Positions 51,411 to 54,530 of a stretch of DNA of 64,000 nucleotides are shown here, one piece after another; the stretch's first letter is position 1; every line of letters starts with the position of its first letter. A program made the position numbers and the translations under genes. Source of the stretch: Xanthomonas sp. DAR 35659 (GTDB taxonomy: Bacteria; Pseudomonadota; Gammaproteobacteria; Xanthomonadales; Xanthomonadaceae); the NCBI RefSeq assembly GCF_041242975.1, contig NZ_CP162488.1, forward strand, positions 1,478,001 to 1,542,000, in the 5' to 3' direction. The notes beneath the pieces were generated by a model. The model ran no database searches and had not been told where the DNA came from. It saw only the letters and a list, made by a program, of their open reading frames with translations.

Positions 51411-51421
<11 letters not shown>

Positions 51422-52412
51422 AGCCGAAAATCGACCGCCGCTGACCCAGGGCGACAACGACAGCCTGCTGTACGGCATCGCCCTGGCGGTGGGCGTGCAC
51501 GTGCTGATCGCGCTGCTGTTCTTCCTCGCCTGGTGGTGGTCGCCGGTACGCCAGGTGGAACCGGCGGCCGGCTCGCCGATGGTCGAGGCCTCTCTGGTGG
51601 TGTCCGCCGCCGACGTGCGTTCGGCGCAGAAGGCGGTGCAGGATGCGCCCAAGCCCTTGCCCGAGCCGCTGCCCGAGCCGGTCAAGGAGGTGGCCGAGGA
51701 AGACGCCGTGCCGCCGCCGCAACCGGTGCCGGTGCCCAAGCCGCAGGACGCCCCGACCGAGCAGCAAAAGAAGGCGCAGGACTTCGTTCCGGTGCCGGAC
51801 AAGGTCGACCAGGACCGCGCCAGCCGCACCGCGATCTCCCAGGAGAAGGAGAAGCAGGAGCAGGAGGCCAAGCGCCGCCAGGAACAGATCGACCTGACCG
51901 AGCAGAAGCGCCAGCAGGAGGCCGAGCAGAAGCAGCGCCTGGCCGCCCAGCAGGAAGAGGAGCGGCAGAAGAAGATCGCCGACATCCGCAAGCAGCGCGA
52001 GCAGGCCGAGCGCGAAGCCAAGCTGGCCGAGCAGAAGCTGCGCCAGCTCGCGGACCTGCGCGCCAAGCAGGCCTCGGCATCCGCCGCGTCCACCGCGCAG
52101 CCGGCGCCGGGCCAGAACGGCACCAACACCGATCTGCAGGCCAAGTACGCCGCGGCGATCCAGCAGGCGGTGCTGAGCCAGTGGGTGCGCCCGGATTCGG
52201 TGCCGCTGGGGCAGAAGTGCAAGATCGCGATCAAGCAGATTCCAGGCGGCACCGTGATGGAAGCCAAGGTCAGCCCCGACTGTCCCTACGACGAGGCGGG
52301 CCGCCGCTCGATCGAGGCGGCGGTGCTGCGCGCGCAACCGTTGCCGTATCGCGGCTTCGAGTCGGTGTTCGCGCGCGAGCTGACCTTCAACTTCACCGCG
52401 CAGGATCGCTGA
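51411..52412 (+). CDS. tolA: TolA, envelope-spanning linker protein
   Basis: This 333-residue protein has the three TolA domains: a transmembrane anchor at about 20-43 (ALAVGVHVLIALLFFLAWWW), a long charged helical region (to about 225, rich in EQKRQQEAEQK-type heptads), and the C-terminal domain III (about 246-333). Domain III opens YAAAIQQAVLSQW and carries a Cys pair (QKCKI, SPDCPYD) as in E. coli TolA-III. Domain III binds TolB and Pal, and also colicins and phage proteins. The 3' part is duplicated downstream in the next gene. Confidence 0.95.
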
Positions 52413-53300
52413 GCGGCCGGGGTTCGGGATGCGAAGTTTTGCGCCCCGTTCCAGGGTCATGGAGGCCGGCCGGCAGGTCCGGAACTTCCCGGGCGGCGGC
52501 GCGATCGGCGATCATTCTCGCTTTCTGCCAGCGGCTTCACATAGCGATGGTTCATGATTGCGAATACGTTCCCCCGCGCATTGCTATCTCTTGCGCCTTC
52601 CCGAGTGCCGCTGGGCGACCCATGAACACACTGCCGCGCTGGCTTGCCGTCCTGGCCGCCCTGTTGCTCCCCTTGGCCGCCTCCGCGCAGGACAAGGGCC
52701 AGGAAACCGACTACGCCGCGGCGATTCAACAGGCGATACTGAGCCAGTGGGTGCGGCCGGATTCGGTGCCGCTGGGGCAGAAGTGCAAGATCTCGATCAA
52801 GCAGATTCCCCCCGGCCAGGTGATCGAGGCCAAGGTCAGCCCCGACTGTCCCTACGACGAGGCTGGGCGGCGCTCGATCCAAGCGGCGGTGCTGCGCGCT
52901 CAGCCCTTGCCCTACCGCGGCTTCGAGCAGGTCTTCGTGCGCGAACTGAACCTCACCTTCACTGCGCGGGATCGCTGAGAGGCCTGGATCGAGATTCGGG
53001 ACTGGGGATGCGAAGTTCGCGCGCCGTTCCAGGGTCCTGGACGCCGCTGGCAGGCCCGGCGAGGTCGGGGAACTCTCCCTCGCGGCGGTGCGATCGGCGA
53101 TAATCCGCGCTTCCTGCCATCGGCTTCACATGGCGATGGTTCATGATTGCGAATACGTTCACCCGCGCATTGCTATCTCTTGCGCCTTCCCGAGTACCGC
53201 TGAGCGACCCATGAAGAAACTGCCGCGCTGGCTTGCCGTCCTGACCGCCCTGTTGCTCCCCTTGGCCGCGTCCGCGCAGGACAAGGGTCTGGAAATCGAC
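52146..53300 (+). repeat. Tandem duplication covering tolA 3' end, spacer and tolB 5' end
   Basis: Unit 1 runs from 52146 to about 52710 and unit 2 from 52712 to about 53300. The TolA-III coding parts are offset by 566 bases and the TolB-signal parts by 589, the difference being about 23 bases of indel in the spacer. Spacers share many runs, such as GATGGTTCATGATTGCGAAT (52548-52567 and 53137-53156). Confidence 0.95.
52622..52978 (+). CDS. Chimeric TolB-signal::TolA-III protein (free TolA C-terminal domain)
   Basis: This 118-residue protein is an in-frame fusion. Residues 1-28 (MNTLPRWLAVLAALLLPLAA...) equal the TolB signal region (MKKLPRWLAVLTALLLPLAA...). Residues 31-118 equal TolA domain III, with 12 differences over 88 aligned residues by my count. 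Both Cys of the domain are kept. After signal cleavage near AQDKG it should be a soluble periplasmic domain of about 95 residues, without the anchor and helical arm of TolA. Its spacing and leader copy those of tolB. It lies inside the tol gene order and probably shares its transcript. In E. coli, free periplasmic TolA-III disturbs Tol function, so a modulating role is possible; not tested. Confidence 0.9.
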   Translation: MNTLPRWLAVLAALLLPLAASAQDKGQETDYAAAIQQAILSQWVRPDSVPLGQKCKISIKQIPPGQVIEAKVSPDCPYDEAGRRSIQAAVLRAQPLPYRGFEQVFVRELNLTFTARDR

Positions 53301-54530
53301 ATCGTCGGCGGCAACGCCTCGGCGACCCCGATCACCGTCGTGCCGATGCCGTACCAGGGCTCGGCCGCCGCGCCGTCCACCGACGTCGCCGCGGTGGTCC
53401 GTGCCGACCTGGATCGGTCCGGCCAGTTCCGCAACCTGCCCGAGGCGCAGATCGTCGAGCGCCCGACCCGCGGCAGCGAAGTGCAGTACGCCACCTGGCG
53501 CGCGCTCAAGCAGGACTACCTGGTCGCCGGCCGGGTGATGGACGCGGGCGAGGGCGCCTACCGGGTCGAATACGAACTGTTCGACGTGGCCAAGGGCGAG
53601 CGCATGCTCGGCCTGGCGATGACCGCCCGCGCCAGCGCGATGCGCGACGTGGCGCACCAGATGGCCGATGCGATCTACGAAAAGATCACCGGCGTGCGCG
53701 GCGCGTTCTGGACCCGCATCGCCTACGTCACCGCCAGCGGCAAGGGCGGGGCGATGCGCTATGCGCTGATGGTCGCCGACTCCGACGGCTTCAACCCGCA
53801 GACCATCGTGCGCTCGGCCGAGCCGCTGCTGTCGCCGAACTGGAGCCCGGACGGCAAGAAGCTGGCCTACGTGAGCTTCGAGCGCGGCAACTCCTCGATC
53901 TACATCCAGGACATCGCCACCGGCGCGCGCCAACTGGTCTCCAGCTTCCGCGGCATCAACGGCGCCCCGTCGTTCTCGCCGGACGGCAAGAAGCTGGCCC
54001 TGGCGCTGTCGCGCAGCGGCAATCCGGAGATCTACGTGATGGACCTGGGCAGCAAGCAGCTGACCCAGCTGACCAACCATTTCGGCATCGACACCGAGCC
54101 GACCTGGGCGCCGGACGGCGGCTCGATCTACTTCACCTCCGACCGCGGCGGCCGCCCGCAGATCTACCAGGTCGCGGCGACCGGCGGCAGCGCCAACCGG
54201 GTGACCTTCCAGGGCAACTACAACGCCACCGCCAGCGTGTCCTTCGACGGCAACAAGATCGCCGTCGCCCAGGGCAGCGGCAACACCTACAAGATCGCGA
54301 TGATGGATCGCAGCCTGGGTTCGCCCCGCTGGAGCACGTTGTCTACGGGCTCGCTGGACGAGTCGCCGAGCTTCGCTCCCAACGCCAGCATGGTCCTGTA
54401 TGCCGCCCGCGAAGGCGGACGTGGCGTGCTTTACGCGGTTTCGGCCGATGCCCGCGTCCGTCAGCGCCTGGTGCTGGCCGATGGCGATGTGCGCGAGCCG
54501 TCGTGGTCGCCGTATCGGACCGCGCGTTGA
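53211..54530 (+). CDS. tolB: TolB, periplasmic beta-propeller protein
   Basis: This 439-residue protein has a signal peptide (MKKLPRWLAVLTALLLPLAASA), the N-terminal alpha/beta domain (about 22-160; its first residues EIDIVGG bind TolA), and a six-bladed propeller with repeats such as LSPNWSPDGKKLAYVS, PSFSPDGKKLALALS and PTWAPDGGSIYF. It shuttles between Pal and TolA. It follows the chimeric gene and precedes pal. Confidence 0.97.
   Translation: MKKLPRWLAVLTALLLPLAASAQDKGLEIDIVGGNASATPITVVPMPYQGSAAAPSTDVAAVVRADLDRSGQFRNLPEAQIVERPTRGSEVQYATWRALKQDYLVAGRVMDAGEGAYRVEYELFDVAKGERMLGLAMTARASAMRDVAHQMADAIYEKITGVRGAFWTRIAYVTASGKGGAMRYALMVADSDGFNPQTIVRSAEPLLSPNWSPDGKKLAYVSFERGNSSIYIQDIATGARQLVSSFRGINGAPSFSPDGKKLALALSRSGNPEIYVMDLGSKQLTQLTNHFGIDTEPTWAPDGGSIYFTSDRGGRPQIYQVAATGGSANRVTFQGNYNATASVSFDGNKIAVAQGSGNTYKIAMMDRSLGSPRWSTLSTGSLDESPSFAPNASMVLYAAREGGRGVLYAVSADARVRQRLVLADGDVREPSWSPYRTAR

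What the first reader, a model, noticed from the sequence alone, without database searches (positions are those of the whole stretch)
52622..52978. A new gene born by tandem duplication: free periplasmic TolA-III made by fusing the TolB signal peptide to TolA's C-terminal domain
Seen: a segment running from tolA domain III through the spacer to the TolB signal codons is duplicated head to tail (52146-53300). At the junction the first TolB signal peptide is joined in frame to the second TolA-III copy. The product is intact, keeps both Cys, and differs from TolA-III at 12 of 88 aligned positions, so it has diverged without losing the reading frame. Known: TolA-III binds TolB, Pal, colicins and filamentous phage proteins, and free periplasmic TolA-III disturbs Tol in E. 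coli. Inferred: this may be a chromosomal competitor or modulator, for example a decoy for phages or bacteriocins that use TolA, or a brake on Tol-Pal.
Basis: partly seen in the sequence, partly recalled or inferred. Interest (0 to 1): 0.86.

Follow-up and report, generated by a model that had tools for sequence, protein, structure and literature searches.

The report
Secreted TolA-III gene between tolA and tolB
A duplication beside a bacterial cell-envelope gene joined TolB's export signal to the free tip of TolA, making a small protein predicted to be secreted; related bacteria carry similar genes in the same spot, the window's one arose on its own, and such proteins could act as a brake on, or a decoy for, the Tol system.

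Summary
A 566/589-nt unit (TolA domain III, spacer, TolB signal codons) is duplicated head to tail, and an intact 118-codon ORF (52622-52978) fuses TolB's signal peptide plus eight mature residues to TolA-III. Within the genus the chimera is in 1 of 20 species held. But a short signal-peptide-like + TolA-III gene between tolA and tolB recurs in the family: 15 of 20 species of one genus, 7 of 52 and 7 of 71 in two others, and five single finds, one in another family. The window's is a separate origin and the only one whose birth is still readable. Its branch evolves about four times faster than tolA (omega 0.10 against 0.025) but below neutrality (p=0.013); omega among the genus-wide copies is 0.10-0.74. 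Best reading: a soluble periplasmic TolA-III that competes for TolA's partners. Brake and phage/bacteriocin decoy cannot be told apart from sequence, and a young gene without function remains possible. No expression data exist here.

The parts
51411..52412 (+). tolA, 333 aa, the intact parent gene; its domain III (52146-52409) carries a G006-like allele
   Evidence: NCBIfam TIGR02794 89.4 bits, cut-off 59.45; tree and site patterns
52146..52711 (+). first copy of the duplicated unit: TolA-III, spacer 1, TolB-type signal and first 8 mature codons
   Evidence: repeats D1 and D2; alignment with 20 other genomes
52413..52621 (+). spacer 1 (209 nt), copy of the leader of tolB; 179 of 206 aligned noncoding bases equal spacer 2
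52622..52978 (+). chimeric gene: secreted TolA-III, 118 aa plus stop
   Evidence: (PF13103 30.9 bits, cut-off 22)
52622..52687 (+). TolB-derived signal peptide MNTLPRWLAVLAALLLPLAASA (cleavage after ASA inferred by eye; no SignalP)
   Evidence: alignment with tolB starts
52688..52711 (+). remnant of TolB's N-terminal TolA-binding segment: QDKGQETD in place of QDKGLEID; both hydrophobic residues lost
   Evidence: TolA-box role from passages of PMC7066135
52712..52975 (+). TolA domain III of the chimera (88 codons), G004-like allele
52979..53210 (+). spacer 2 (232 nt), leader of tolB
53211..54530 (+). tolB, 439 aa; its first codons close the second copy of the unit at 53300
   Evidence: NCBIfam TIGR02800 535.5 bits, cut-off 343.15

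Best explanation
A chromosomal gene for a soluble periplasmic TolA domain III, made by a tandem duplication from tolA-III into the tolB signal codons. Shown: the duplication, the fused intact frame, the TolA-III family and fold, the separate ancestry of the chimera's domain from the domain now in the neighbouring tolA, slow-but-faster-than-tolA evolution, and recurrence of the same gene architecture at the same place in other genera. Inferred: export through TolB's signal, translation from a copied tolB leader, folding in the periplasm with the Cys pair. Proposed mechanism: without domains I and II it cannot transmit force, but it offers the same beta-edge that binds TolB's N-terminus, filamentous-phage pIII and some colicins; it therefore competes with membrane-bound TolA. 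The net effect is either a mild brake on TolA-TolB coupling or a sponge for foreign ligands that use the same edge. Loss of the two hydrophobic residues of the TolB remnant at its N-terminus would leave its own groove free.
For: Anatomy. Family: TonB_2 above cut-off; model pLDDT 82.4, pTM 0.67; all 6 PDB matches at E<=0.001 are TolA-III entries, the first being 6s3w, TolA-III with the TolB peptide. Selection: omega 0.102 on the chimera branch against 0.025 elsewhere; equal rates rejected p=0.041, neutrality rejected p=0.013. No indel in the 357-nt ORF against 5 indel runs between the two noncoding spacer copies, two of them deletions of 14 and 12 nt in copy 1. Recurrence: 34 further loci (33 with intact frame) hold a short TolA-III gene between tolA and tolB; in one genus 15 of 20 species, one clade at 100/100, omega 0.104-0.736 in 12 pairs. 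Edge use by TolB, pIII and colicin N/A: passages of PMC7391070, PMC7066135, PMC4339652.
Against: No transcript, protein or phenotype. Absent from the 19 other species of the genus. In the TolA-III part, changes found only in the chimera are 5 nonsynonymous to 3 synonymous, compatible with little constraint, and part of its branch predates the duplication, so omega 0.10 may flatter it. Random substitution alone leaves the ORF stop-free in 49% of trials at 20 changes and 37% at 28, so an open frame is weak evidence. The signal lost two lysines (K2N, K3T). No promoter-like or terminator-like site and no Rfam match in 52300-53330. A natural competitor of an envelope machine could be harmful, and one relative's copy (G389) is frameshifted.
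Confidence: 0.5

Rival explanations
1. Young duplicate without a function of its own: expressed or not, it drifts and will decay, kept open so far by chance and by descent from a slowly evolving domain.
For: 1 of 20 species; private changes 5N:3S in the TolA-III part; faster than tolA (p=0.041); stop-free by chance in 30-56% of simulations; a related copy is frameshifted (G389).
Against: Omega=1 on the branch rejected (p=0.013); copies are old: noncoding identity between the copies 86.9%, between the tolB spacer and seven other species 80.8-84.3%, with indels in the spacer and none in the ORF; similar genes persist across 15 of 20 species of another genus.
Confidence: 0.28
2. Phage or bacteriocin decoy: the free domain soaks up pIII-like or colicin-like ligands before they reach membrane TolA.
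For: pIII and colicin N bind TolA-III at the TolB edge (passages); patchy, repeated presence and fast change look like conflict genes.
Against: Nothing here ties presence to phage load; no change was mapped to a binding edge; 15-of-20 presence in one genus looks more like a housekeeping role; no relative in 50,697 phage or 72,556 plasmid records at E<=1e-3, so it does not travel as a phage gene in those collections.
Confidence: 0.17
3. Reservoir for recombination: the second TolA-III mainly serves as, or simply results from, allele exchange at tolA (it preserves the older domain III while the intact gene took a foreign one).
For: Chimera and G004 share 14 sites against G000 and G006, none the other way; flanking stretches of tolA-II and tolB are nearest G004.
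Against: Explains the history but not the signal peptide or the recurrence elsewhere; the reverse, import of the chimera from a G004-like strain, gives the same sites.
Confidence: 0.05

Closest known systems
TolA domain III of TolA (Tol-Pal system)
   Same: Fold and sequence: 82% identity to the neighbouring TolA, PDB matches 6s3w, 4g7x, 1lr0, 3qdp, 2x9a, 3qdr
   Different: Has a cleavable-type signal in place of the membrane anchor and no domain II, so it cannot pull
Short TolA-III genes between tolA and tolB in other Xanthomonadaceae (e.g. Luteimonas panaciterrae L066, Xanthomonas chitinilytica L057, Stenotrophomonas sp. PS02289 L050)
   Same: Place, size, hydrophobic start, TolA-III domain
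   Different: 46-57% identity to the chimera domain where measured by tblastn for those three or their handles, no readable TolB-derived signal; not described in print as far as the searches show
VreA (PA0674) of Pseudomonas aeruginosa
   Same: Soluble-type secreted protein with a C-terminal domain modelled on TolA/TonB (passages of PMC2729926)
   Different: Carries an N-terminal signalling domain and sits in a sigma-factor signalling locus; 9.3% identity to TolA as stated there
TonB C-terminal domain (PF13103)
   Same: Pfam family that the chimera passes
   Different: TonB is membrane-anchored and pulls on transporters

Membership tests
TolA/TonB C-terminal domain | profile match and beta-beta-alpha-beta fold | tested here: met
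   PF13103 30.9 bits over cut-off 22 (PF06519 23.3, under its 25); model and PDB matches
full TolA (TIGR02794) | membrane helix and domain II with domain III | tested here: not met
   chimera 42.3 bits against cut-off 59.45, only model positions 269-361
TolB | TolB N-domain and beta-propeller | tested here: not met
   only the signal and 8 mature residues are present; no TolB family in its scan
signal peptide + TolA-III gene between tolA and tolB (class described here) | own ORF between tolA and tolB holding TolA-III without domain II | tested here: met
signal peptide + TolA-III gene between tolA and tolB (class described here) | common descent with the other members | tested here: not met
   chimera nested in its genus's tolA (100/88 and 98/88); one clade of all 25 solos rejected p=0.030
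signal peptide + TolA-III gene between tolA and tolB (class described here) | export to the periplasm | not testable with these tools
   hydrophobic start only; no signal-peptide predictor
phage/bacteriocin decoy | binds the parasite ligand and protects | not testable with these tools
   needs binding and challenge assays

The most novel reading that the evidence does not exclude
Xanthomonadaceae have repeatedly made the same kind of gene, a membrane-free, secreted TolA domain III placed in the tol operon, to blunt the use of TolA by filamentous phages and bacteriocins (or to damp Tol-Pal); the window catches one such birth with donor, signal and junction still readable.
Probability: 0.25. Interest if true: 0.85.

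Novelty: new variant of a known kind. Interest (0 to 1): 0.62.

Why it matters
Free TolA-III has been a laboratory construct (recalled, not looked up). If genomes encode it, Tol-Pal has natural soluble competitors, and a question that is usually asked with mutants (what happens when TolA's partners are titrated) can be asked with native genes. The recurrent architecture gives a comparative set for testing brake against decoy, and the window gives a dated example of gene birth by fusing a neighbour's export signal to a duplicated domain.

Tried and rejected
Assembly error: rejected, single contig and 9-14% divergence. Simple duplication of the present tolA: rejected by site patterns. Mobile origin: no phage or plasmid relative. 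A described RNA or a sigma-70-type promoter in the leader: nothing found. TolB-derived signal in the other loci: not supported. G189 and G402 first looked positive, but other-genus pairs score as high (G402 self 31.1 bits, others up to 34.0) and the best G189 alignment is out of register; only 16 of 17 equal bases around the G189 start codons remain, suggestive. One old family for all other solos: not rejected (p=0.224 without the chimera, 0.217 without chimera and G189). The place of the G189 solo changed between trees (with its own tolA 80/85, with other solos 99/68), so I do not count it as an origin. Three origins are forced by starred branches only in the larger tree; the smaller one forces two; both assume tolA gives rise to solos and not the reverse, and gene conversion could mimic it. 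An eye-catching point kept only as a lead: both substitutions in the 8-residue TolB remnant remove its hydrophobic residues (n=2, noticed afterwards).

Full report
What is there. Between tolA (51411-52412) and tolB (53211-54530) lies an extra ORF, 52622-52978. Repeat search gives two families that abut: TolA-III DNA 52141-52421 / 52707-52987 at 86% and spacer plus TolB signal 52487-52718 / 53076-53307 at 91%. The unit is 566 nt in the first and 589 nt in the second copy, and the junction lies at 52711/52712, where the eighth codon of mature TolB (Asp) meets the Tyr that opens TolA-III. The product reads MNTLPRWLAVLAALLLPLAASA-QDKGQETD-YAAAIQQ.... The 19 other species of the genus have 165-260 nt between tolA and tolB and no such ORF; the protein search finds the full chimera in 1 of 20 species.

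Family and fold. The chimera passes the TonB_2 cut-off, falls short of the TolA domain and full-TolA cut-offs, and its model (30-row alignment, pLDDT 82.4, pTM 0.67; signal part near 53-55) matches six TolA-III entries at E<=0.001. By sequence alone the two best PDB matches are also TolA-III, 6s3w and 1lr0, at E 0.0014 and 0.0016.

History. On a tree of 22 TolA-III DNA rows the chimera pairs with G004's tolA (97/94) and the window's own tolA with G006's (98/94). Of 41 two-state sites among the four, 14 join chimera and G004, none joins chimera and own tolA alone; four bases are found in chimera and G004 only, one each in chimera with G008 and with G003. Windows along the locus put part of tolA-II and parts of tolB nearest G004, and own TolA-III nearest G009, G013 or G006. 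The simplest account is duplication of a G004-like allele followed by replacement of domain III in the intact tolA; import of the chimera from a G004-like strain would leave the same sites. The duplication is not recent: the two noncoding spacers agree at 179 of 206 bases (86.9%), the tolB spacer and those of seven other species at 80.8-84.3%.

Selection on the chimera. Changes seen in no other tolA of the set are 5 nonsynonymous and 3 synonymous in the TolA-III part (leaving out five in the first three codons, which are TolB-derived). A codon model of my own (GY94 type, 21 rows, 88 codons, one topology, no recombination) gives omega 0.102 on the chimera branch and 0.025 elsewhere; equality is rejected at p=0.041 and neutrality at p=0.013. 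The branch includes time before the duplication. The ORF has no indel; the spacers differ by five indel runs. Random substitution alone would often leave it open (0.56, 0.49, 0.37 and 0.30 of 5000 trials at 15, 20, 28 and 35 changes). So constraint is likely but weak.

Signal and TolB remnant. Against all compared tolB starts the copied signal has lost Lys2 and Lys3 (K2N, K3T); T12A also occurs in G009 and G017. In mature TolB the N-terminal segment is the TolA-binding site and its hydrophobic residues are essential in E. coli and P. aeruginosa (passages of PMC7066135). In the chimera this segment is cut short at Asp and its Leu and Ile have become Gln and Thr, while all 21 compared tolB rows, the window's own included, keep LEID. 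This would leave the domain without a strand of its own in its groove; two changes are too few for a test.

The same architecture elsewhere. Translation of these 25 loci shows the order tolA, short gene, tolB in all 25. Profile searches by genus then gave 15 of 20 in g28 (four more species have an unlinked one, one has none), 7 of 52 in g41, one of them frameshifted, and 7 of 71 in g42. With G200, G189, G077, G278 and G035 this makes 34 loci besides the window, 33 with intact frames. Of the 25 loci scored for a hydrophobic start 23 reach a 10-residue mean of 1.97 or more; G389 is broken and G274 was not scored; the nine others were judged by eye. In a class-wide sample of 143 genomes, 141 of them outside the family, no other genome had two adjacent matches; in 61 of the order only G035 did. 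Both are profile searches at E<=1e-6 and could miss divergent copies. Named examples, by equal contig length and sequence, are Luteimonas panaciterrae (L066), Xanthomonas chitinilytica (L057) and Stenotrophomonas sp. PS02289 (L050).

Are they one family? In two trees of 56 TolA-III domains the chimera sits with G004 (100/88, 98/88) and the g28 solos form one clade (100/100, 100/99). All solos as one clade is rejected (p=0.030), all but the chimera is not (p=0.224). In the larger tree the f12 solo pairs with its own tolA (100/96), which gives three origins if solos come from tolA; in the smaller tree that pair was unresolved. So the window's origin is separate, a third is likely, and the rest may be one old, often lost family. 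In g28 omega of the solo domain is 0.104-0.736 in 12 non-independent pairs against 0-0.170 for TolA-III of tolA: purifying selection, relaxed relative to tolA.

How it would work. TolB binds TolA-III by beta-strand augmentation with Kd about 40-200 uM; phage pIII (g3p) and colicin N use the same edge, colicin A another (passages of PMC7391070, PMC7066135, PMC4339652). A secreted TolA-III without anchor can bind these ligands but cannot pull. Whether dose is enough to matter is unknown. I give 0.5 to a functional soluble competitor, 0.28 to a gene without function, 0.17 to decoy as its main role.

Print. Eight searches listed no paper whose title or abstract describes such a gene. In the 2025 survey of tol-pal loci (PMC12204202: outline, first part of one results section, and passages) I saw no mention; its supplements were not available. 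The nearest precedent seen is VreA, a protein with a signal sequence and a TolA/TonB-like C-terminal domain (passages of PMC2729926). The library holds open-licence papers only.

Noticed in passing
L117-L130 (g28 loci), e.g. L125, and L115, L116: The 15 g28 solo proteins end in a basic, Trp-containing tail (such as RVKRWWRQVRER), and 13 of 15 have an extra Cys pair before the domain (such as CDSPEHC). Unexplained.
   Followed up: partly
L120, L121, L125, L127, L128, L129 (g28) and L113 (g41): The solo start codon overlaps the tolA stop (TGATG), which suggests translational coupling.
   Followed up: no
L131 (G389): The solo gene is frameshifted: the domain is spread over two frames.
   Followed up: no
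L133-L138, L141-L147 among others: Unlinked short TolA-III genes with hydrophobic starts occur elsewhere in several family genomes, e.g. 132-codon frames in G095 and G049.
   Followed up: partly
window 53135-53210 and copies: The last ~75 nt before tolB are almost invariant across the genus and the tolB frame is often open through them from an upstream ATG; no promoter or Rfam match.
   Followed up: partly
window 52400-52412 and 52960-52978: TolA and the chimera end four residues after the last strand of the model, so the C-terminal helix that covers the TolB site in P. aeruginosa TolA (passage) seems to be missing in this genus.
   Followed up: no
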